From Aromatoleum toluvorans (lineage in GTDB: Bacteria; Pseudomonadota; Gammaproteobacteria; Burkholderiales; Rhodocyclaceae): a DNA stretch of 64,000 nt. This document shows positions 9,553-23,123 of this stretch, in pieces. The position numbers were made by a program, and so were the translations under genes. Where the stretch lies: assembly GCF_012910905.1 (NCBI RefSeq), contig NZ_WTVN01000003.1, forward strand, positions 1-64,000, written 5' to 3'. Below the pieces are notes generated by a model, which had not been told where the DNA came from, ran no database searches, and was given only the letters and a program-made list of their open reading frames with translations. Within the stretch, counting starts at the first letter, position 1. Every line of letters starts with the position of its first letter.

Positions 9553-11154
9553 CTACGCCCCTGAAAGCGACCGAAGCTTGAATCTCTGGATCTTGCCGGT
9601 TGCCGTCTTGGGCAACTCTTCGACGAACTCCAGCCAGCGCGGGTACTTGTACGGTGCGAGCTTGCTCTTGACGTGGAGCTTCAGCTCGTCCGCAAGGTCC
9701 GCCGCGGGCATGCGCCCCGGTTTCAGCACGACGAAGGCCAGCGGCTTGATCAGGCCGTCATCGTCCGCCTTTCCGACCACCGCCGCTTCGAGCACCGCAG
9801 CATGCGTGATGAGCGCCGATTCGACCTCGATCGGCGAAACGTAGATGCCGCCGACCTTGAGCATGTCGTCGTTGCGCCCGGCGTACACGTAGTTGCCGTC
9901 CGCATCCTGGCTGTACTTGTCGCCGCTGCGCGTCCACTGGCCGATGAAGGTCTCGCGGCTCTTCGTGCGGTTGTTCCAGTAGAGCGCCGCGCTGGTCGGC
10001 CCGCGCACCTGGAGTTCGCCCGCCTCGCCTTGCGCGACCTCCGCGCCGTCGTCGCCGATCAGGCGCAACTCGTATCCTGGCACTGGCTTGCCGCTGGTGC
10101 CGTAATGCACGTCACCTGACCTGTTCGAAAGGAAGATGTGCAGCATCTCGGTCGAGCCGAGTCCGTCCAGGATTTCGACGCCGAAGTGCTCGGTCCAGCG
10201 CTTGCCGACTTCCGCCGGCAGCGCCTCGCCGGCAGACGTGCAGCGGCGGATGGACAGTTCCTCGCGCCCCGGCAGTGCCGGGCTCGCCAGCATCGACGCG
10301 TAGAGCGTCGGCACGCCGCAATAGATCGTCGGCTGATGCTCGCGCAGCACGCGGAACACTGCGTCCGGCGTCGGCCGTTCGGCCATCAGCACCGCCGTGC
10401 CACCGGCGGCCAGCGGAAAAGTCAGGCCGTTGCCCAGGCCGTAGGCGAAGAACAACTTCGCCGCGGAGAAAACGACGTCGTCCTCGGTCACGCCGAGGAT
10501 CGGCTTCGCGTACAGCTCGGCGGTATGGATCAGGCTCGAGTGCAGGTGCACCGTGCCCTTCGGGGCGCCGGTCGACCCGGACGAATACAGCCAGAAACAG
10601 GGATCGTCGCAGCAGGTCTGCGCGGCCTCGTACGGCGGGCGCGGCGACGCGATCAGTTCGGCGAAGTCGAGATGTCCGCCGCGGGTGCCGGCGTCGCCGC
10701 CCGAGACGATCACGTTCTTGATGAAGGGGCTGGCTTCGATCGCGCTGGTGAAAGCCGGCAGCAGGGCCGACGAGACGACCAGGCCGCGCGCACGGCTGTC
10801 GCGCAGCATGTAGGTGTAGTCGGATGCCGTCAGCAGGGTGTTGACGGGGATCGGCACGACGCCGGCCTTGATGCAGCCGAGGAAGGCCGTGGGGAAATCG
10901 ACGGTGTCGAGCAGGCACAGCAGCACCCGCTCCTCCATGCGGATGCCCATCTCGCCCAGGGCGTGCGCGAAGCGATCGACGCGCTCGGCGAGTTGCGCAT
11001 ACGTATAGCTCCCCGCCTGGTCGATCACCGCCGTCTTGCCGCCGCGCCCAGCGCGCAGGTTGCGCTCGATCAGGTCGTGCGCGGCGTTGTATTCACGCGG
11101 AATCGTGATTCGCGGTGGGCTGACGCTCTGATCCGCGGCGCTAAGTTCTGCCAT
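9553..11154 (-). CDS. bzdA: Benzoate-CoA ligase
   Basis: A 533-residue AMP-forming acyl-CoA synthetase, the first enzyme of the pathway: benzoate + ATP + CoA to benzoyl-CoA + AMP + PPi. The P-loop YSSGSTGAPKG lies near residue 180, the adenylate-binding LGSTEM near 330, the hinge/ribose-binding segment AGRNDDMLKVGG near 425, and the catalytic lysine is in KTATGKIQR close to the C-terminus. The segment FFAYGLGNGLTFPL is characteristic of benzoate-CoA ligases. The start at 11154 is preceded by GGAGGAG; the ATG 13 codons upstream lacks this. It lies 58 bases after bzdZ in the catabolic operon. Confidence 0.95.
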   Translation of the reverse strand: MAELSAADQSVSPPRITIPREYNAAHDLIERNLRAGRGGKTAVIDQAGSYTYAQLAERVDRFAHALGEMGIRMEERVLLCLLDTVDFPTAFLGCIKAGVVPIPVNTLLTASDYTYMLRDSRARGLVVSSALLPAFTSAIEASPFIKNVIVSGGDAGTRGGHLDFAELIASPRPPYEAAQTCCDDPCFWLYSSGSTGAPKGTVHLHSSLIHTAELYAKPILGVTEDDVVFSAAKLFFAYGLGNGLTFPLAAGGTAVLMAERPTPDAVFRVLREHQPTIYCGVPTLYASMLASPALPGREELSIRRCTSAGEALPAEVGKRWTEHFGVEILDGLGSTEMLHIFLSNRSGDVHYGTSGKPVPGYELRLIGDDGAEVAQGEAGELQVRGPTSAALYWNNRTKSRETFIGQWTRSGDKYSQDADGNYVYAGRNDDMLKVGGIYVSPIEVESALITHAAVLEAAVVGKADDDGLIKPLAFVVLKPGRMPAADLADELKLHVKSKLAPYKYPRWLEFVEELPKTATGKIQRFKLRSLSGA

Positions 11155-11212
11155 TTGCTCCTCCTCTCCTTGTCGTTCGTATCGGTCTGGCATCTCCTTG
11201 CGGCGGCGGGAT

Positions 11213-11959
11213 CTAGTGAATCGTTAGTCCGCCGTCGGCTGCCAGAATCTGTCCCGTCACGTAGTTCGCCGCATCCGAAGCGAAGAACACGAACACCGGG
11301 GTAATTTCCTCCGGCTCGGCCCAGCGCCCGAGCGGAATGCGGTCGAGGTACTTTTCCTTGAATCGTTCGTCGGTGCGGATCGTCTCGGTCATCGGCGTCG
11401 CCGCTCCCGGCGCAATCGCATTCGCGGTGATGTTGTAGCGCGCCAGCTCCTTGGCGGTGCTCTTGGTCATGCCGAGCACGCCGGCCTTCGCGGCGCTGTA
11501 GTTGATCTGCCCGATCGTGCCGAGCACGCCGGCGGTGGACGTCACGTAGATGATGCGCCCGTACTGGCGCTCGATCATGCCGCCGACCACGGCCTGCAGG
11601 CAGTTGAATGCGCCGGTGAGATGCACCGCCAGCACCTGGTTCCACTGGTCCGGCGTCATCTTGTTGAGCATCGCCGTGCGCGTGATGCCGGCGTTATTGA
11701 CGAGGATGTCGATGCGGCCCCATTGCGCATTGACCTTGGCGGCCATCGCTTCGACCTGCTCGCGGTCCGCGACGTTGCACGCCACCCCGATCGCCTGTCC
11801 GCCGGCCTCGACGATCTGTCCGGCCACGCGGTCTGCGGTCGCCTGATCGAGATCGATCACCGCAACCTTCGCGCCCTCTTTTGCATAGGCCTTCGCAACG
11901 GCCGCCCCGATGCCCTGCCCCGCTCCGGTCACGATTGCGACCCTGTCTTTCAACTGCAT
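11213..11959 (-). CDS. bzdZ: Short-chain dehydrogenase/reductase
   Basis: A 248-residue SDR-family oxidoreductase. The N-terminal TGAGQGIG is the dinucleotide-binding glycine motif, DL at residue 37-38 suggests NAD(H) preference, NNAG stabilises the sheet, and the catalytic Ser-Tyr-Lys is visible in STAGV and YSAAK. In the Azoarcus bzd operon this position is bzdZ. It may act as an alternative or additional dehydrogenase of the cyclic hydroxyacyl-CoA or its ring-opened product; the exact substrate is not established by sequence. It is separated from bzdY by 155 bases holding a terminator-like hairpin. Confidence 0.88.
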   Translation of the reverse strand: MQLKDRVAIVTGAGQGIGAAVAKAYAKEGAKVAVIDLDQATADRVAGQIVEAGGQAIGVACNVADREQVEAMAAKVNAQWGRIDILVNNAGITRTAMLNKMTPDQWNQVLAVHLTGAFNCLQAVVGGMIERQYGRIIYVTSTAGVLGTIGQINYSAAKAGVLGMTKSTAKELARYNITANAIAPGAATPMTETIRTDERFKEKYLDRIPLGRWAEPEEITPVFVFFASDAANYVTGQILAADGGLTIH

Positions 11960-12114: not shown

Positions 12115-13248
12115 TCAGGCCTTGGGCTTCGCCAGGACCTGCTCGGCGAAGTTGTCGTCGAACATGGCGCCTTCGGCGACGAGCTGGCGGAACTTGATGA
12201 AGTCGATGACGTCCTTGCCGGTCGCCTTCTTGTTGTTGAAGGCGGTGAAGCCGAGGTACGCCTCGTGATTCATGTTCGCCGCGAGCCAGTGCCGGTTGGC
12301 GAGCTTCAGCTGGTCCCAGAAGAACTTCTTCTTGCCGCGGATGCCGTCGATCGACTTGATCAGGCACTGCGGGAAGAGGTTCGTGAACTTCCACACGAGC
12401 GCATTGACTTCCGCGTCGAGGCGCGAGAAATCGGTCGCGCATTGGCCGATCAGATCCTTCGCCGCCTGGACCTTGTCGGCCGCGACCGGCTCGCCGTAGA
12501 CCAGCTCGCCGTCATCGACGTAGGCATCGGTGCGGACGAGCGGGTTGCGGACCCATTCGCCGTCCTTGTTCTTCAGCACCGGCACGACCTTGGTGATGAG
12601 GTTCTTCGACTTCATCTTGTACGCGCTCCACGGCTCGCACGAGATGCAGTTGTACATCGCGTCTTCCATGTTCAGCATCCACGGCAGGAAGTCCGTGGAG
12701 CCGCCATCCGGCGCGCTGCCGTGCTTCGGGCCGGCTTGGCCGAACACCGCCATGTCGGACGTGATCGTGATGTCGGTCGCCATGCCGATCTCCTGGCCGC
12801 CGCCGACGCGCATGCCATTGACGCGGCAGATCACCGGCTTCTTGCAGTTCAGTATGCCGTCGACCATGGCGTTGAACAGATCCATGTACTCGCCGTACTC
12901 GTTCGGGCGACGGGCATAGTAGGACGCGTATTCCTCGGTGTTGCCACCGGTGCAGAACGCCTTGTCGCCCATCGCGGTGAACACCACCGCCGTGACCGTG
13001 CGGTCGCCGGAGGCGCGCTGGAACCCGGCGATGACGCCCTTGACCATCTCGGTCGTGTAGGAGTTGTACTGCTTCGGGTTGTTCAGGATGATCCACGCGG
13101 CGTACAGGCCCGGAACCTGATTACCCTGCGGGTCCGTCACGGGACGCTTTTCGAAGATGACCGAGGGCGCCTCGGTGCCGAAATGCTCGTGACCGAGCAG
13201 GGCGTGATCCTTGGTTTCGTTGTCGCGGGGCAGCCAATCGAGTGCCAT
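12115..13248 (-). CDS. bzdY: 6-oxocyclohex-1-ene-1-carbonyl-CoA hydrolase (ring opening)
   Basis: A 377-residue crotonase-fold enzyme, longer than ordinary enoyl-CoA hydratases as expected for Oah/BzdY. It adds water twice to 6-oxocyclohex-1-ene-1-carbonyl-CoA and hydrolyses the ring to 3-hydroxypimelyl-CoA. Landmarks are FCTGGNTEEYASYYARRP near residue 115 and NGMRVGGGQEIGMATD near 160, where the oxyanion-hole backbone positions of the crotonase fold lie. The start at 13248 has AGGAGACATCTC before the ATG. An in-frame region upstream runs back into bzdX and is not credible as coding. It follows bzdX by 35 bases. Confidence 0.95.
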   Translation of the reverse strand: MALDWLPRDNETKDHALLGHEHFGTEAPSVIFEKRPVTDPQGNQVPGLYAAWIILNNPKQYNSYTTEMVKGVIAGFQRASGDRTVTAVVFTAMGDKAFCTGGNTEEYASYYARRPNEYGEYMDLFNAMVDGILNCKKPVICRVNGMRVGGGQEIGMATDITITSDMAVFGQAGPKHGSAPDGGSTDFLPWMLNMEDAMYNCISCEPWSAYKMKSKNLITKVVPVLKNKDGEWVRNPLVRTDAYVDDGELVYGEPVAADKVQAAKDLIGQCATDFSRLDAEVNALVWKFTNLFPQCLIKSIDGIRGKKKFFWDQLKLANRHWLAANMNHEAYLGFTAFNNKKATGKDVIDFIKFRQLVAEGAMFDDNFAEQVLAKPKA

Positions 13249-13283
13249 GAGATGTCTCCTGTTATGTCCAGTGGTGCGTGAAA

Positions 13284-14351
13284 TCAGAAATCGGGCGTCA
13301 GGATGACGCGACGCTTGAGCTTGCCGTGGTGTGCCTCGTCGAACACCTGTTCGATCTGGCTCATCGGACGCGTCTCGACGAAAGGTCCGAGCTTGATGCG
13401 GCCGTCCAGGCACATGTCGCGCACGGCGGCGTAGCGGTCCGGCGGGCAGCCCCAGGTGCCGATGATCTCGGCATCGAAGGCCATCAGCTTGGAGAGCATG
13501 TAGTTCGTCTCGGCCGTGCCGTAACCGACGATCACGAGCTTGCCGGTGAAGGACAGCAGCGACAGCGCGAGCTCCTGGCCGGGCTTGCTGCCGGTGACCT
13601 CGAAGATCTTCCAGCCGTAGTTCGACGGCAGGCCGCGCTCCTTGCAGAAGCCCTTGAACAGCTCCTTGACGTCCTTCGCGCTCTTGTCCTTCGGATTGAT
13701 GATGAAGTCGGCACCGAAGTCCTTCATCATCGTCAGCTTTTCTTCATTGATGTCGATGCCGATCACGGCCTTCGCGCCCATGCCCTTGGCGGTCTGCACC
13801 ATGAAGCTGCCGACGCCGCCCGCGGCGCCGATGACGATCACCAGGTCATCCTTCTTCAGGTCGGCGCGCACCGCGGCCTGGTAAGGCGTCGTCACGGCAT
13901 CGGCGACCACCGCGAGGTGCTCGAGCGGCGTGCTGCCGCGGTTCTCGACCACGCACAGGTACTTCGACTGCGCGACGATGTGGCTCGAATAGCCGCCGTA
14001 GATGCCCATCGAATTGCCCGGCATCTTCTGCGACAGGCAGCGGTTGCCGCGACCGGTCTTGCACAGCTCGCACTCGCCGCAGGGGATGACGGCCGGCACG
14101 ATCACTTCCTTGCCGATCATCGACGCTTCGCCGCCGATCACCGTGCCGGAGATCTCGTGGCCCAGCGATAGCGGGGGCTTCTGCACCGTCGGCACGCCCA
14201 TGTAGTAGTAGGACAGGTCGGTATGGCACACGCCGCAGCCGGCGATCTTCACGACGACGTCGCCCGGGCCCAGGGCGGGCATCGGCACACGGGTCTTCTG
14301 CAGCTTGCCCGGCTCGGTCATCTGCCAGGTATCGATGAATTCAGGAATCAC
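13284..14351 (-). CDS. bzdX: 6-hydroxycyclohex-1-ene-1-carbonyl-CoA dehydrogenase
   Basis: A 355-residue zinc alcohol dehydrogenase (MDR family) that oxidises 6-hydroxycyclohex-1-ene-1-carbonyl-CoA to the 6-oxo compound with NAD+. The catalytic zinc site is visible as GCGVCHTD and GHE; the structural zinc site as CGECELCKTGRGNRC; the coenzyme site as GAAGGVGSF near residue 180. Length and motifs match the Had enzyme of Thauera and BzdX of Azoarcus. It is preceded by an unusually long 174-base gap after bzdW that contains a long inverted repeat. Confidence 0.95.
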   Translation of the reverse strand: MIPEFIDTWQMTEPGKLQKTRVPMPALGPGDVVVKIAGCGVCHTDLSYYYMGVPTVQKPPLSLGHEISGTVIGGEASMIGKEVIVPAVIPCGECELCKTGRGNRCLSQKMPGNSMGIYGGYSSHIVAQSKYLCVVENRGSTPLEHLAVVADAVTTPYQAAVRADLKKDDLVIVIGAAGGVGSFMVQTAKGMGAKAVIGIDINEEKLTMMKDFGADFIINPKDKSAKDVKELFKGFCKERGLPSNYGWKIFEVTGSKPGQELALSLLSFTGKLVIVGYGTAETNYMLSKLMAFDAEIIGTWGCPPDRYAAVRDMCLDGRIKLGPFVETRPMSQIEQVFDEAHHGKLKRRVILTPDF

Positions 14352-14525: not shown

Positions 14526-15305
14526 TTAGGTGTTCCGCCAAACCGGCTTCCGCTTCTCCAGGAAGGCAGCCAGCCCTTCCTTCGCGTCGTCGGTGTTCAT
14601 CAATTCCTTCAGGTAGATGTTCTCGGCGGTGTCGAGCGCGGCAGCGAAAGGCTTGTCGGCCACGGCGCGGATCGTCTTGCGGGTGCTGGCCAGTGCTGCA
14701 CGGCTGAGCGTCAGGAACGGAGCGACGAAGCCCTGCACGTCCGCGGCGAAGCTCTCCTTCGCGAACACGCGATTCACCAGCCCGATCGCCTTCGCCTCGT
14801 CCGCGCCGATGTTCTCGCCGCCCAGCAACAGCTCCAGCGCACGCGCCGGCGGCACCAGGCGCGGCAGCAGCACCGCGGCGATCGGCGGGAACACCGCGAG
14901 CTTGATCTCCGGCTGGCCGAACTTCGCGTTGGACGCCGCGACGAGCATGTCGCACGCAATCGCCACTTCCATGCCGCCCCCGAGCGCCACGCCATTCACC
15001 GCGGCCAGCGTCGGAATCGGCAGCTGCTGCATGCGGCGGAAGATGCCGTGGAACACCTCGATCATGCGATCGACCTTGTCCGGCGTGTGGTCAGCGACCT
15101 CGACGCCGGCCGAGAAAGCCTTCTCGCCCGCACCGGTGATCATCAGCAGCTTCACGCTGTTGTCCGCCAGGCAGCGGTCCAGCGCGACGTTCATCTCCTC
15201 CATCGTCGGGATGTCGAGGACGTTGAACGGCGGGCGGTTGATCGTCAGCGTCGCGAGGCCGTCGGCCACGCCGTAGGTGATGAACTGGAATTGCGCACTA
15301 CTCAT
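14526..15305 (-). CDS. bzdW: Cyclohexa-1,5-diene-1-carbonyl-CoA hydratase
   Basis: A 259-residue crotonase-family protein that adds water to the diene produced by benzoyl-CoA reductase, giving 6-hydroxycyclohex-1-ene-1-carbonyl-CoA. The oxyanion-hole segments are FSAGVEVADH near residue 65 and GVALGGGMEVA near 110. The N-terminal TINRPPFNVLD and the length match Dch/BzdW rather than ordinary fatty-acid hydratases, and the context (next to the dehydrogenase and the ring hydrolase) fixes the assignment. It follows the small Cys-rich gene by 45 bases. Confidence 0.94.
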   Translation of the reverse strand: MSSAQFQFITYGVADGLATLTINRPPFNVLDIPTMEEMNVALDRCLADNSVKLLMITGAGEKAFSAGVEVADHTPDKVDRMIEVFHGIFRRMQQLPIPTLAAVNGVALGGGMEVAIACDMLVAASNAKFGQPEIKLAVFPPIAAVLLPRLVPPARALELLLGGENIGADEAKAIGLVNRVFAKESFAADVQGFVAPFLTLSRAALASTRKTIRAVADKPFAAALDTAENIYLKELMNTDDAKEGLAAFLEKRKPVWRNT

Positions 15306-15350: not shown

Positions 15351-15533
15351 TCAGTTCTCGTTCTTCATCTGCAGCCGGTAGGGGCAAACCGCGTCGCAGT
15401 CCGCACAGCACACCTCGCCGTCGCAGCGGATATGCCATAGATCCGCGCCGCAATTCGTGCACCGGCACTTCGCTTCCGGCTTGATGGCGGGGCGGATCTC
15501 CTCCGCCGACCAGAAATCGATGACCTGTCCCAT
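15351..15533 (-). CDS. 60-residue Cys-rich protein inside the bzd operon
   Basis: A small gene between bzdV and bzdW. It starts 12 bases after the bzdV stop and has a near-ideal ribosome-binding site (GGAGG, 5 bases before ATG), so it is probably translated. The C-terminal half holds eight cysteines in the pattern CxCxxC...C...CCxxC...C (residues about 23-51, beginning CRCTNCGADLW), which suggests a zinc ribbon or a metal/Fe-S site. The N-terminal MGQVIDFWSAEEIRP is soluble, and no membrane segment is seen. I do not recognise the family; the operon naming (V then W) leaves no letter for it. A role in redox or assembly of the iron-sulfur enzymes is only a guess. Confidence 0.78.
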   Translation of the reverse strand: MGQVIDFWSAEEIRPAIKPEAKCRCTNCGADLWHIRCDGEVCCADCDAVCPYRLQMKNEN

Positions 15534-15545
15534 GTCGGCCTCCGG

Positions 15546-18095
15546 TCAGAAGAGGTCGTCGAGTTCGTCGGATCCGCCGCCGGGCATCTTCCCGAACTGC
15601 TGCAGGTAGGCCTGGATCATCTGGCTTTCGCGCGAGGTGAAGAGCGCGGCTTCCTCGAACACGAAGTTCGTCGCGTCGCCGCCGCGCTCAAGCTGCTCCA
15701 TCAAGCCTTCGCGAAGGTTCTCGACGCCCTTGATCATCAGCACGTTCTTGTTGCCGTCGAGCAGCTGGAACACGCCCGACTCGGTCGGCACGGACGCGAT
15801 CGTCGCCTCGTCGAACTTCAGCGAGGACTCCGGCGGCAGGATCGCCTCGGCGATCTTCGGCGCGAGGTTGCACTTGAAGCAGCGCGCTGCTTCGGCACGG
15901 GCCGTCGCGTCGTCGAAGCCGAGTTCCACCTCGTCCCAGCCGGTGCGCTGTTCTGGCGCCAGCATGATCGGGTGGAACTTGCGGATCTTGTTGAAGCCTT
16001 CCTTGCGGCCGATGCGCGGGTTGGTCTCCCAGCCGTTGCGCAGCAGCACTTCGGAGATGTCGCCGTCTCCGCCGAGCACGATGTCCATCGCCGAAGCCGC
16101 AACCCGGCCCTGCGCCACGGACTCGATCAGCGTCGAAGGTCCGAGCACGCAGTCGCCGCCGGCATAGACCTTGGGCCGGCTCGTCAGCATCGAATCCTCG
16201 CGCACCGTGATGCGGCCCTTGCGGTCCGTCTCGACGCCGAAGCCTTCGAAACGCTTCGGGAACTGGCCGATCGCGGCGATCACCAGATCCACGCCCTCGA
16301 CCACTTCCTCGCCGGTCTCGACCGGCTTGCGGCGGCCGGAGGCATCCGCCTCGCCGAGCGCCATCTTCGCGTAGGTGATCTGCAGCCGGAAACCGTTGGT
16401 GCCCGGCTCGATCTTCTTCGGCGCGAGCAGGTAGCGGATATTCACGCCCTCCTCCACGCAGCCCTCGAACTCCTCCAGGCGCGCCGGCATCTCCTCGCGG
16501 GTGCGGCGATACACCATGTCGACCTCGGCGCCGAAGCGGCGCGAGCTGCGCGCGTTGTCGGTCGCGACGTTGCCGCCGCCGATCACCGCGACCTTCTTGC
16601 CGGTCTGGATGCCCTCGGGCGTATTCACGAGGCCCATCGTCACGGCCTTCAGGTAGGTCGGGCTGTCGACCACGCCCGGCAGGTCGTCGCCGGGGATCCC
16701 CAGCTTGTCGCCGCCTTGGGCGCCGATGCCGACGAACACGGCGCCGTAACCGTCATTGAACAGCGTATCGACGTTCTCGACCTTCGCACCGAAGCGGAAC
16801 TCGACGCCCAGCGCCGACACCTCGGCGACCTCGTTGTCGATCACTTCGGCCGGCACGCGGTAGGACGGGATGCCGTAGCGCGCCATGCCGCCCGCAGCCG
16901 GCTGCGCGTCGAACACCGTGACGCCGTGCCCCTGCTTCGCGAGGTAGTAGGCCACCGTCAAACCGGCCGGACCGGCACCGATCACCGCGGCCTTCTTGCC
17001 GGTCGCGGGCAGCTTCTTCGCATGCTCACGCCAGATGCCCGTGTCGTTGTCGGCGGCGATGCGCTTCAGGTTGCGGATCGACAGCGGATCGTCGAGATCC
17101 TTGCGGCGGCAGGCCGATTCGCACATCGCGAAACAGGCGCGGCCGAGGATGCCCGGGAACGGCAGGCGCTCGCGCACCACCGCGATCGCTTCGCCGTATT
17201 TGCCTTCGGCGGCGAGCTGCACGTAGCGCGGCACATCGATGCCGGCCGGACAGGCGTTCTTGCACGGCACCATCGACTCCTCGCGCTTGGCGGGGTCGAG
17301 CGTGCGGTCCATCAGCGCGCCGGTCGGGCACACGGTCACACAGGCTTGGCAGAAGGTACAGCCGGACTCGATCAACGTCGGCGCGATCGTGCCGACGTAG
17401 GTGCGCTTGCCCTGCGGCGTCTCGACTTCCTTGACTTCGAGACAGCCCACGCCGCGCACGTCGTTACAGGCGACGAGGCAACGACGGCAGTCGATACAGA
17501 GGTTGTAGTCGCGATCGAAGAAGGGTTCGTCCTTGATGATCGGCAACTGCACCGGCTTGTACGGCGGTGTCGTGTTCGGAATGCCGATGTAGTCGGAGAC
17601 CTTGCGCAGCTCACAGGACGAGAAGATCGTGCAGCAGCGCGTTTCCTGCGGGTTGCCATAGGAGCACTGCGAGCGCGAACAGCCGTCGCGCTGCGGACAG
17701 GTCAGGCAGACATGGGGGTGCGGGCCGAGGATCTTGGCGAGGCTCGCCTGGCGCACTTCCTGGATCGCCGGCGACTTCGTCGTCACGACCATGCCGGCCG
17801 TGACGGTGGTCGAACAGGCCTTCACGACCCCGTCGACACCGTCGATTTCGACCATGCACAGATTACAGCCGCCGTCGCCAGCGCCGCGCTGACCGGCGGG
17901 CGGAAGATCGGGGTGCGCGCACAGCGCAGGAATGTAGAGACCCGCGGCGGTCGCCGCATTCAGGACCGACGCACCCACCGGGGCCTCGACCTCGACGCCA
18001 TCGATGCTCAGCTTCACCGGCGCACCGAACTCGGCCATCCCCGCCGGCTTGCTCGCCTTCCACCACCTGATTTCCGATGTCTGTACGGCTTCCAT
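15546..18095 (-). CDS. bzdV: Multi-domain iron-sulfur flavoprotein, putative NAD(P)H:ferredoxin oxidoreductase
   Basis: An 849-residue protein proposed in Azoarcus to supply electrons to the BzdM ferredoxin. Reading the chain: a NuoG-like [2Fe-2S] domain with cysteines from about residue 58 to 95; a Cys/His segment around 128-145 (HVCLTCPQRDGC); two ferredoxin-type clusters at about 200 (CIDCRRCLVAC) and 250 (CTFCQACVTVCP); a GltD-like helical domain from about 277 (CKNACPAGIDVPRYV); an FAD site near 370 (VIGAGPAGLTVAYY); an NAD(P) site near 502 (VIGGGNVATD); and a second FAD-contact segment near 650 (YAGGD). A further CFKC motif is near 735, followed by a C-terminal extension of about 100 residues. 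It replaces the KorAB system used by Thauera. Confidence 0.9.
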   Translation of the reverse strand: MEAVQTSEIRWWKASKPAGMAEFGAPVKLSIDGVEVEAPVGASVLNAATAAGLYIPALCAHPDLPPAGQRGAGDGGCNLCMVEIDGVDGVVKACSTTVTAGMVVTTKSPAIQEVRQASLAKILGPHPHVCLTCPQRDGCSRSQCSYGNPQETRCCTIFSSCELRKVSDYIGIPNTTPPYKPVQLPIIKDEPFFDRDYNLCIDCRRCLVACNDVRGVGCLEVKEVETPQGKRTYVGTIAPTLIESGCTFCQACVTVCPTGALMDRTLDPAKREESMVPCKNACPAGIDVPRYVQLAAEGKYGEAIAVVRERLPFPGILGRACFAMCESACRRKDLDDPLSIRNLKRIAADNDTGIWREHAKKLPATGKKAAVIGAGPAGLTVAYYLAKQGHGVTVFDAQPAAGGMARYGIPSYRVPAEVIDNEVAEVSALGVEFRFGAKVENVDTLFNDGYGAVFVGIGAQGGDKLGIPGDDLPGVVDSPTYLKAVTMGLVNTPEGIQTGKKVAVIGGGNVATDNARSSRRFGAEVDMVYRRTREEMPARLEEFEGCVEEGVNIRYLLAPKKIEPGTNGFRLQITYAKMALGEADASGRRKPVETGEEVVEGVDLVIAAIGQFPKRFEGFGVETDRKGRITVREDSMLTSRPKVYAGGDCVLGPSTLIESVAQGRVAASAMDIVLGGDGDISEVLLRNGWETNPRIGRKEGFNKIRKFHPIMLAPEQRTGWDEVELGFDDATARAEAARCFKCNLAPKIAEAILPPESSLKFDEATIASVPTESGVFQLLDGNKNVLMIKGVENLREGLMEQLERGGDATNFVFEEAALFTSRESQMIQAYLQQFGKMPGGGSDELDDLF

Positions 18096-18152: not shown

Positions 18153-18794
18153 TCAGGCAGCCTGCGCGAGTTGCGCGTAACCGGGGTAGTAGCTCCCCTG
18201 GCAGGCACCAGCGCGGACCGCCGCGATGAAACTCGCCATGTCGGTGACCGGTTGCGAGAATTTCGTCGCGCACCGTCCGACGGCAATCGTCTTGTGGCAA
18301 TCGCTGCCGCCCAGCGCTGGCAGGGCCATGTGGCGAGCGGCACTGATTGCCAGATCGTTGTCGCTGTCGAGGTTGCCGCCGTTGTGGGTTTCCACGGCGG
18401 CAATCCCGGTGATGTCGAGCAGCCCGTGCAGCAGGCTCGCGACCCCGACCTCGCGGAACGGATGAGCCGGTACGCAGATTCCGCCGATGCTGTTGATATG
18501 CTCGATGACCTCGTTGATCGGGAGGTAGTTGTCGCGCCCCCAGATGTTCCAGCCGTCATCCTGCATACCGTACGCCAGCATGTGCCCGCGATCGGTTGCG
18601 ATCTCCACGCCGCGCAACACCAGGAAACCCTCGTCGCGCCCCACCTGTTCGACAGGCAGCGACGCTTCGTACGAGTAATGCTCGGTGATGCACACCCCGT
18701 CGAGTCCCAGTTCCTTCGCGCGGCGGATCAGATCCACCGGCTCCAGCCAGTTGTCGTAGGAGTACTTGGTATGGCAATGGCAATCGATCCACAT
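18153..18794 (-). CDS. bzdU: PHP-domain phosphoesterase-like protein
   Basis: A 213-residue PHP-domain protein. The metal-binding residues are all visible: HCHTKYS at residues 6-12, ITEHYS near 37, GVEI near 62, PAHPFR near 110 and GGSDCHK near 170. Such proteins hydrolyse phosphate esters with two or three metal ions. What it does in anaerobic benzoate degradation is not known. In the Azoarcus operon this position is bzdU. It is 30 bases after bzdT and 57 before bzdV, in line with a single transcript. The complete metal set argues that it is catalytically active. Confidence 0.85.
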   Translation of the reverse strand: MWIDCHCHTKYSYDNWLEPVDLIRRAKELGLDGVCITEHYSYEASLPVEQVGRDEGFLVLRGVEIATDRGHMLAYGMQDDGWNIWGRDNYLPINEVIEHINSIGGICVPAHPFREVGVASLLHGLLDITGIAAVETHNGGNLDSDNDLAISAARHMALPALGGSDCHKTIAVGRCATKFSQPVTDMASFIAAVRAGACQGSYYPGYAQLAQAA

Positions 18795-18824
18795 GGGACG
18801 GACTCCGCGCGCCGGCCTGGCCGC

Positions 18825-19277
18825 TCAGGAAACGGTGTACTCGAGGTTGATGCGCTTGGACGGCGAGAAGCGCTGGCGGGAGAAGAATTTCTCCAGCGCG
18901 AAGTCGTCCCAGTTCACCAGCGTGTAGACCTTCTTCACGCCCGCGGCCTTCATGTTCATCATGAACTGGTCGAGCAGTTCGCTCGCCACGCCACGATTCT
19001 GGAAGCGCGGATCGACGCCGATCGTGTCGATCGTCGCGGTCGACTCCGGAATGCCGAACTCGCCGAAATACACGTCGCCCATCACGAAACCGGCAAGCTT
19101 GCCGTCGATCTCGCACACAAGGGAGGAGTTGATGTTGTGCTGCGGATTGAGAACCCCTTCCAGCTTCCGCTCGTAGTACTCGCGACGATTCTGCTTGGAC
19201 CCTGCAGCGTCGATCTCGACGATCGCATTCAGGTCTTCCTTCTTCAGCACCCGCATCACACGCTTCTGGTCAGACAT
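18825..19277 (-). CDS. bzdT: GNAT-family N-acetyltransferase
   Basis: A 150-residue protein with the GNAT fold: an N-terminal strand-helix (RVLKKEDLNAIVEID), a central strand with GKLAGFVMGDV and the acetyl-CoA pyrophosphate-binding motif DPRFQNRGVASELL, close to the consensus Q/RxxGxG/A, near residue 95. The substrate is unknown. It corresponds to bzdT in the Azoarcus operon. It could acetylate a pathway protein or a small molecule, but nothing in the sequence decides this. Confidence 0.85.
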   Translation of the reverse strand: MSDQKRVMRVLKKEDLNAIVEIDAAGSKQNRREYYERKLEGVLNPQHNINSSLVCEIDGKLAGFVMGDVYFGEFGIPESTATIDTIGVDPRFQNRGVASELLDQFMMNMKAAGVKKVYTLVNWDDFALEKFFSRQRFSPSKRINLEYTVS

Positions 19278-19328: not shown

Positions 19329-19628
19329 TCAGAACAGTTCGTCTTCCTGCTGGGGCTTCGTCGAGCGGCGGGTGTATACCGTGCCGATGACCTTCCCCAT
19401 TTCCTGGTCGGTGTCGAGGCAGGTCGTGCAGCCGTCACCCTCGGTCTGGTAGCTCTCGACGTGAACCTCGAAACCCATGCCCCGGTACGCTTCGGCGATC
19501 TCGGACAAGCGCGGCTCGCCAATCGTCGTCAGCCGCTTCCACCCTTCGCGCAGCAGCCGATCCTCAGCCTCCTCTTCGCGAGGGGCACTACCGGCCAGCT
19601 TGATCGGGATCGTCTTCTTCGTGCTCAT
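19329..19628 (-). CDS. bzdS: Small protein of unknown function in the bzd operon
   Basis: A 99-residue hydrophilic protein starting MSTKKTIPIK. The ATG at 19628 is preferred over one ten codons upstream because GGAGGG lies 8 bases before it. It contains one Cys pair, GCTTCLDTD, around residue 70, and no membrane helix or signal peptide. I do not recognise a wider family. Its position between the ferredoxin gene and bzdT matches bzdS of the Azoarcus cluster, whose function is not established. Confidence 0.75.
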   Translation of the reverse strand: MSTKKTIPIKLAGSAPREEEAEDRLLREGWKRLTTIGEPRLSEIAEAYRGMGFEVHVESYQTEGDGCTTCLDTDQEMGKVIGTVYTRRSTKPQQEDELF

Positions 19629-19668
19629 CTTGGAACCCTCCGTCATCGCCGGGAACATGGTTTACTCC

Positions 19669-19953
19669 TTACCAGGAATGCTTGATCGCGCCCGGCGTGC
19701 AGGCGGTGGTACAGGGCAGGCCGGTGTAGCCGCCGGCCGGCTTGCAGTCGGCACAGTCATAGGCGAGTGCCCGGGTCTTCTCCTTCTTCACCCACGCCAC
19801 TTCATCGTCGTAGTCGTCGGTGATGATTTCGAACATCTGCTGCGGACAGGCCTTCAGGCAAGCCCGCTCGGCCGCACAGTCGATGCACTTGTCCGTGTCG
19901 ATGCTGATGTAGTACTCGCCGGAACCGTCCTTGTAACCGTAGTTCGCGATCAT
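19669..19953 (-). CDS. bzdM: 2[4Fe-4S] ferredoxin, electron donor for benzoyl-CoA reductase
   Basis: A 94-residue ferredoxin with two cluster-binding motifs: CIDCAAERACLKACP near residues 23-37 and CADCKPAGGYTGLPCTTACTP near 67-86 (quoted in part). Both have inserted residues between the second and third Cys compared with a plain CxxCxxC motif, a feature also of the Thauera benzoate ferredoxin. It carries low-potential electrons to the BzdNOPQ reductase. It lies 62 bases after bzdQ and 40 before bzdS. Confidence 0.93.
   Translation of the reverse strand: MIANYGYKDGSGEYYISIDTDKCIDCAAERACLKACPQQMFEIITDDYDDEVAWVKKEKTRALAYDCADCKPAGGYTGLPCTTACTPGAIKHSW

Positions 19954-21797: not shown

Positions 21798-23123
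<1,326 letters not shown>

What the first reader, a model, noticed from the sequence alone, without database searches (positions are those of the whole stretch)
15351..15533. Overlooked Cys-rich 60-residue gene inside the bzd operon
It starts 12 bases after bzdV with an ideal ribosome-binding site and encodes eight cysteines in a metal-binding pattern. The standard operon naming has no gene between V and W. It could be a zinc-ribbon or Fe-S helper for BzdV or the reductase.
Basis: partly seen in the sequence, partly recalled or inferred. Interest (0 to 1): 0.72.

Follow-up and report, generated by a model that had tools for sequence, protein, structure and literature searches.

The report
Conserved zinc-ribbon gene in benzoate operon
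A small unnamed gene in the operon for oxygen-free benzoate breakdown is a real, strongly conserved protein that probably holds one zinc atom and works next to the operon's electron-supply enzyme BzdV, although many related operons do without it.

Summary
A 60-codon frame on the minus strand (15533 to 15351) starts 12 bases after the bzdV stop and ends 45 bases before bzdW. It is a real gene. In 395 genomes of the same family, 71 have BzdV and 28 have this gene. All 28 are among the 71; none of the 324 without BzdV has it. In 27 of the 28 it lies between bzdV and bzdW; in the 28th it follows bzdV and the contig ends. Within the genus it is under strong purifying selection (dN/dS 0.01-0.08). 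In 4 of 29 copies its start codon overlaps the bzdV stop. Of eight cysteines five are invariant and a sixth is in 28 of 29 copies; CxxC-x14-CxxC suggests one zinc ribbon. Cysteine count alone is weak evidence. The gene is missing after BzdV in 38 of 69 judged loci, so it is an accessory, not a core reductase part. Best reading: zinc-ribbon accessory subunit or assembly helper of BzdV. Partner, metal and fold are inferred, not shown. 'Overlooked' could not be checked against record annotation.

The parts
15351..15533 (-). small zinc-ribbon gene, 60 aa
   Evidence: frame and translation; copies in 28 of 395 family genomes; dN/dS 0.01-0.08 within the genus
15450..15461 (-). first knuckle C25xxC28
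   Evidence: both Cys in 29 of 29 copies; place computed
15396..15410 (-). second knuckle C42-C43xxC46
   Evidence: all three Cys in 29 of 29 copies; place computed
15384..15386 (-). C50 of the CPYR motif
   Evidence: Cys in 28 of 29 copies
15534..15545 (-). 12-base spacer with GGAGG ribosome-binding site
   Evidence: the spacer is -1 to 14 bases in 28 of 29 copies
15546..18095 (-). bzdV: NADPH:ferredoxin oxidoreductase-like, 849 aa; NuoG-like iron-sulfur N-part and GltD-like flavin part
   Evidence: Pfam and NCBIfam matches
14526..15305 (-). bzdW: enoyl-CoA hydratase family (dienoyl-CoA hydratase by place)
   Evidence: ECH_1; best NCBIfam match TIGR03189, below its cut-off
13284..14351 (-). 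[quoted passage not shown]
   Evidence: TIGR03201 over cut-off
12115..13413 (-). bzdY: 6-oxocyclohex-1-ene-1-carbonyl-CoA hydratase (frame overlaps bzdX, so the true start is probably further in)
   Evidence: TIGR03200 over cut-off from residue 68
11213..11959 (-). bzdZ: short-chain dehydrogenase
   Evidence: adh_short_C2
9553..11193 (-). bzdA: benzoate-CoA ligase
   Evidence: TIGR02262 over cut-off
18153..18794 (-). bzdU: PHP-type metallohydrolase
   Evidence: PHP and PHP_C
18825..19277 (-). bzdT: GNAT acetyltransferase
   Evidence: Acetyltransf_1
19329..19658 (-). bzdS: no family
   Evidence: 0 Pfam families at E 0.01
19669..19953 (-). bzdM: ferredoxin
   Evidence: 4Fe-4S matches, each under its curated cut-off
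21798..23102 (-). bzdO: benzoyl-CoA reductase subunit O
   Evidence: TIGR03191 over cut-off

Best explanation
The gene encodes a small one-zinc protein. C25, C28, C43 and C46 hold one zinc ion in a zinc ribbon, with the invariant W33 in the stretch between the knuckles. The invariant C42 and near-invariant C50 are spare thiols. The well-kept head (MG-Q/T-VIDF) and the CPYR tail are docking surfaces. It is made in step with BzdV by translational coupling and binds BzdV as a small accessory subunit or assembly/stability factor of the NADPH:ferredoxin branch that feeds the benzoyl-CoA reductase. Shown: gene reality, fixed place after bzdV, tie to BzdV, cysteine pattern, overlapping stop/start in some copies, absence from many BzdV loci. 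Inferred: zinc, ribbon fold (weak model), coupling, binding to BzdV, helper role.
For: 28 of 28 gene-bearing genomes have BzdV, against 0 of 324 genomes without BzdV. The gap to bzdV is -1 to 14 bases in 28 of 29 copies, and the start overlaps the bzdV stop (TGATG) in 4 of 29. Some copies have no clear Shine-Dalgarno (e.g. tgagcggcaccgac), which fits re-initiation after bzdV. Purifying selection. C25, C28, C42, C43, C46 in 29 of 29 copies. The low-confidence AlphaFold2 model (pLDDT 64.9, strands 33-35 and 41-43) has the TFIIB zinc ribbon as its first Foldseek match (1.3 A, 27 columns, E 0.86); the 26 profile matches in the PDB (E 0.17 or worse) include several that I recall as zinc-binding (MsrB, GATA, TFIIB, uS14).
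Against: 38 of 69 judged BzdV loci have no copy and the BzdV tree needs at least 6 changes of presence, so BzdV works without it. Tree and distance tests do not single out BzdV over BzdW as partner: 4 against 6 changes on 63 rows, distance correlations 0.66 and 0.64 on 17 rows; in the 4 overlapping copies bzdW also starts only 2 bases after the gene. No fold or family match is significant for the window protein. No expression or binding data.
Confidence: 0.45

Rival explanations
1. It is a small iron carrier (rubredoxin-like or small Fe-S protein) that passes electrons between BzdV, the ferredoxin BzdM and the reductase.
For: It sits in a redox operon beside an iron-sulfur flavoprotein and a ferredoxin; six conserved cysteines; a designed mini-rubredoxin is among the weak PDB matches (E 0.74, 1.8).
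Against: No ferredoxin or rubredoxin family for the window protein at E 10 in Pfam or NCBIfam; of 14 members one matches a ferredoxin-like NCBIfam model at E 0.071. The second knuckle CCADC lacks the CPxCG of rubredoxin (motif recalled). 19 of the 38 loci without the gene show bzdM on the stretch (my tally), so BzdV and BzdM work without it.
Confidence: 0.15
2. It is a regulator: a zinc-ribbon protein that binds RNA, DNA or RNA polymerase and tunes the operon.
For: Its first, non-significant, structural and profile neighbours include transcription factors and ribosome chains; distant relatives are stand-alone small genes outside bzd.
Against: It lies deep inside the operon, tight to bzdV, and the operon already has the repressor BzdR (passage of PMC6678401); the matches are not significant.
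Confidence: 0.15
3. It is a redox or oxygen sensor/protector: a zinc ribbon with spare thiols (C42, C50) that switches BzdV off or guards it when oxygen arrives.
For: C42 in 29 of 29 and C50 in 28 of 29 copies although one zinc needs only four Cys; PMC9765128 on facultative EbN1 says that keeping benzoyl-CoA reductase under oxygen may require yet unknown protection (passage).
Against: I have no data on the oxygen habits of hosts with and without the gene; inference only.
Confidence: 0.15
4. It is not a gene: a chance Cys-rich frame.
For: Cys-rich small frames are common in this window (11 of 286).
Against: Frame, start, stop and core cysteines are kept in 24 distinct proteins among 29 copies, at 58-98% identity to the window copy and 47% for one, with dN/dS 0.01-0.08 in the genus.
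Confidence: 0.02

Closest known systems
Zinc-ribbon domains (such as the TFIIB N-terminal domain)
   Same: Two CxxC pairs, here 14 residues apart; first but non-significant Foldseek match (E 0.86) and among the weak PDB profile matches
   Different: Whole protein is about one ribbon, with an extra C42 and a CPYR tail; no Pfam or NCBIfam ribbon model matches the window copy at E 10
Stand-alone small zinc-ribbon proteins of related bacteria (L046, L047, L052, L180)
   Same: Head like VVRLDEYR or IIDMAKYR followed by a CxxC...CxxC core; profile E 1.0e-8, 8.2e-8, 9.7e-6 and 1.2e-7
   Different: About 66-107 aa, outside bzd clusters, rest of the protein unlike
Rubredoxins
   Same: Two CxxC pairs in a very small protein
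   Different: No Pfam or NCBIfam match; second knuckle is not CPxCG (recalled motif)
2-oxoglutarate:NADP+ oxidoreductase of Azoarcus evansii (recalled, no paper read)
   Same: One of its subunits is recalled to be BzdV-like, so a small extra subunit could be looked for there
   Different: No 7-kDa subunit is recalled; not checked

Membership tests
bzd operon gene | Same strand and close spacing inside the operon in several species | tested here: met
   27 of 28 gene-bearing family genomes have it between bzdV and bzdW; in the 28th the contig ends after it
bzd operon gene | Present in every cluster of the kind | tested here: not met
   absent after BzdV in 38 of 69 judged loci, 7 more not judged
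bzd operon gene | Needed for growth on benzoate | not testable with these tools
   needs a deletion strain
Zinc ribbon | Two CxxC knuckles conserved | tested here: met
   C25, C28, C43, C46 in 29 of 29 copies
Zinc ribbon | Ribbon fold | tested here: inconclusive
   AlphaFold2 pLDDT 64.9, two short strands; Foldseek best E 0.86, 0 of 77 matches at 0.001
Zinc ribbon | Binds zinc | not testable with these tools
   needs metal analysis
Rubredoxin / ferredoxin | Match to a family model | tested here: not met
   0 Pfam and 0 NCBIfam families for the window protein at E 10
DUF7567 (Pfam PF24451) | Score over the curated cut-off | tested here: inconclusive
   8 of 14 members match at E up to 1, best 0.001; the window protein has none; cut-off not shown for them
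BzdV complex subunit | Physical binding to BzdV | not testable with these tools
   no two-chain prediction or pull-down available

The most novel reading that the evidence does not exclude
The gene is an unrecognised small subunit of the NADPH-driven ferredoxin-reducing enzyme (BzdV type) whose spare cysteines act as an oxygen or redox switch, giving facultative denitrifiers a fast brake that protects or gates the ATP-burning benzoyl-CoA reductase; lineages with other habits lost it.
Probability: 0.1. Interest if true: 0.75.

Novelty: new member of a known kind. Interest (0 to 1): 0.42.

Why it matters
The bzd operon is a much-studied model for oxygen-free benzoate breakdown in denitrifiers and was cloned from strain CIB as a working cassette described as bzdNOPQMSTUVWXYZA plus bzdR, with no gene named between V and W (PMC5658619, passages). 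If the small protein belongs to the electron-supply step, work on BzdV has missed a partner. How low-potential electrons reach the reductase from NADPH is, to my knowledge (recalled), not settled; a deletion and a pull-down of this gene would test part of it directly.

Tried and rejected
Cysteine richness as proof was rejected: frames overlapping real genes in this window are often Cys-rich. Phage or plasmid origin: best E 0.6 in plasmids and 1 in phages, and in viral contigs 43 stretches matched a pattern but none was a relative. Wider spread: class search with the first profile gave the own genome plus 9 weak matches (0.001-0.01) of 369 genomes; order search 2 of 310, the second a distant stand-alone protein; phylum search 1 of 309, the own genome. 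These are samples of much larger groups. Linking the gene to bzdV rather than bzdW by tree or distance was not decisive. The AlphaFold2 model is of low confidence, so no geometry was read from it. G737 has a 241-base V-W gap; in the 300 bases printed after its bzdV no frame with two CxxC is seen.

Rows dropped before counts: in the BzdV tree, two loci repeating family genomes and one fragment (G553b) were left out and 7 rows without the BzdV end were not scored; in the distance test, 10 near-identical same-genus rows were dropped by hand and rows without a usable BzdW fell out, leaving 17.

Full report
What is there. The window carries a bzd operon on the minus strand: bzdO is over its curated cut-off, and after the finding come a dienoyl-CoA hydratase-like BzdW, BzdX, BzdY, a short-chain dehydrogenase (BzdZ) and benzoate-CoA ligase BzdA. 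Gene letters follow the published order bzdNOPQMSTUVWXYZA (PMC6678401: passages, section 3.1). Between bzdV (15546-18095) and bzdW (14526-15305) lies a 60-codon frame, 15533 to 15351, minus strand. Twelve bases with GGAGG separate it from the bzdV stop, and 45 bases from bzdW.

Is it a gene? Cysteine count is poor evidence: 11 of 286 frames of 40-120 aa in this window have eight or more. Conservation is strong evidence. Among 101 relatives, the own genome included, 18 had a match better than 1e-20; all 18 are among the 22 with bzdO. Against 15 other same-genus copies the window copy shows 9-22.5 synonymous and 1-9.5 amino-acid-changing differences, dN/dS 0.011-0.079; five copies outside the genus give 0.14-0.39. 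All are compared with one reference and the copies are related, so these are not independent tests.

Tie to BzdV. In 395 genomes of the family, 71 have a BzdV match at 1e-120 or better and 28 have the gene at 1.9e-23 or better. Comparing the two lists, all 28 are among the 71, so 0 of 324 genomes without such a BzdV have it and 43 of 71 with BzdV lack it. One search scored at most 14 candidates a genome at E 0.001, so a very divergent copy could be missed. It also listed six weaker matches: three at 1.0e-8 to 9.7e-6 to other small proteins and three near 1e-3 to frames of about 800 aa. I examined 76 stretches with BzdV: 71 genomes, two of them with two stretches, and three named-record loci of which two appear to repeat family genomes. 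In 69 the BzdV end was on the stretch: 31 have the gene directly after BzdV (29 without repeats) and 38 do not; 7 could not be judged. G517 has one BzdV locus with the gene and one without. BzdW was found after the gene in every gene-bearing stretch but G478, whose contig ends.

Coupling. From the bzdV stop to the start there are -1 to 14 bases in 28 of 29 copies; the start in G478 is uncertain. In four copies (G571, G642, G623, G775) the start overlaps the bzdV stop as TGATG, and in the same copies bzdW starts 2 bases after the gene's stop. This fits translational coupling, with both neighbours.

Patchiness. On a quick BzdV tree of 73 rows, 66 scored (29 with, 37 without), the fewest changes are 6. 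On the 63 rows with a usable BzdW the count is 4 on the BzdV tree and 6 on the BzdW tree. Since the gene is always at the same place, one old gain with several losses is the simpler story, but the tree cannot tell gain from loss. Of clusters with at least 1,200 bases upstream of bzdV on the stretch, 27 of 27 with the gene show bzdT and bzdU there, against 17 of 31 without it (my tally; 2 with and 7 without the gene were too short and left out). So the gene sits in the fuller operon type.

Protein. Across 29 copies (24 distinct) C25, C28, C42, C43, C46 and W33 are invariant, C50 is in 28, H34 in 27, C23 in 22, C37 in 16. Eight of the 29 copies have a longer tail with another Cys (as in RRAECSLA). 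The pattern C25xxC28-x14-C43xxC46 is that of a one-zinc ribbon. Pfam, NCBIfam and PHROGs give nothing for the window protein at E 10. For 14 members the best are DUF7567 (8 of 14, best E 0.001), one member to an RRQRL zinc-binding model at 0.0016 and one to a phrog without a name at 0.0023. The AlphaFold2 model is poor (pLDDT 64.9, 12 rows). Of 77 Foldseek matches none reaches 0.001; the first is the TFIIB zinc ribbon, and most of the 50 listed are chains of ribosome structures. Together this favours a zinc ribbon, without proof.

Mechanism. The likeliest reading is a zinc-ribbon accessory subunit or assembly helper of BzdV, made in step with it. BzdV joins a NuoG-like iron-sulfur part to a GltD-like flavin part and is described as a putative NADPH:ferredoxin oxidoreductase (legends in PMC6678401, and PMC5658619). 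Against it: BzdV lives without the gene in more than half of the judged loci, and the data do not separate BzdV from BzdW as partner. Rivals are an iron carrier, a regulator and a thiol switch.

Literature. I searched for bzdV/bzdW/anaerobic benzoate (20 of 190 listed), bzd/Azoarcus/zinc ribbon (20 of 45), Aromatoleum proteomics terms (20 of 114), the A. evansii enzyme (6 of 6), DUF7567 (none), the operon string (6 of 6) and benzoyl-CoA with zinc ribbon or small protein (4 of 4). No title or shown start of an abstract in these listings describes this gene; I read passages of four papers (PMC6678401, PMC5658619, PMC9795900, PMC9765128) and one section of the first. The 2004 paper on the cluster is not held. 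The CIB cassette was made from native fragments (PMC5658619), so it would carry the gene if CIB has it.

Noticed in passing
window 15546-15590 and the BzdV loci: BzdV ends in a conserved acidic tail (DE-L/M-DDLF, DALDDLF in distant copies) in the loci I printed, whether or not the small gene follows; it looks like a docking tail for a shared partner.
   Followed up: no
window 18153-19277: bzdT (GNAT acetyltransferase) and bzdU (PHP metallohydrolase) are not seen upstream of bzdV in 14 of 31 comparable clusters that lack the small gene, but are seen in 27 of 27 with it (my tally).
   Followed up: partly
L150, L151, L152, L156, L157: A BzdV-like clade (G569, G553, G641, G488, G583) matches only up to residue 632-778 and shows none of bzdM, S, T, U, W, X on its stretches; probably another system.
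   Followed up: no
L143 and L060: BzdW identity to the window does not track BzdV identity (G491: W 84%, V 68%; G053: W 61%, V 82%), which suggests swaps of bzdW inside the operon.
   Followed up: partly
L046:5043-5333, L047:4555-4878, L052:4570-4884, L180: Stand-alone small zinc-ribbon proteins with a similar head occur outside bzd; the first three end in a WWW-W stretch and are followed by a frame with a shared TGGRSEN-like motif.
   Followed up: partly
L114, end: The G478 contig ends in what looks like an Illumina adapter (recalled sequence), so its last bases are probably an assembly artefact.
   Followed up: no
L107, L057: In G008 extra, palindrome-like sequence lengthens the stretch between the small gene and bzdW to 124 bases, against 28-70 in the other 60-62-aa copies measured.
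   Followed up: no
G000:C45:22112-23401: The window's genome has a second bzdO-type gene and no second copy of the small gene; perhaps a methylbenzoyl-CoA reductase cluster (recalled).
   Followed up: no
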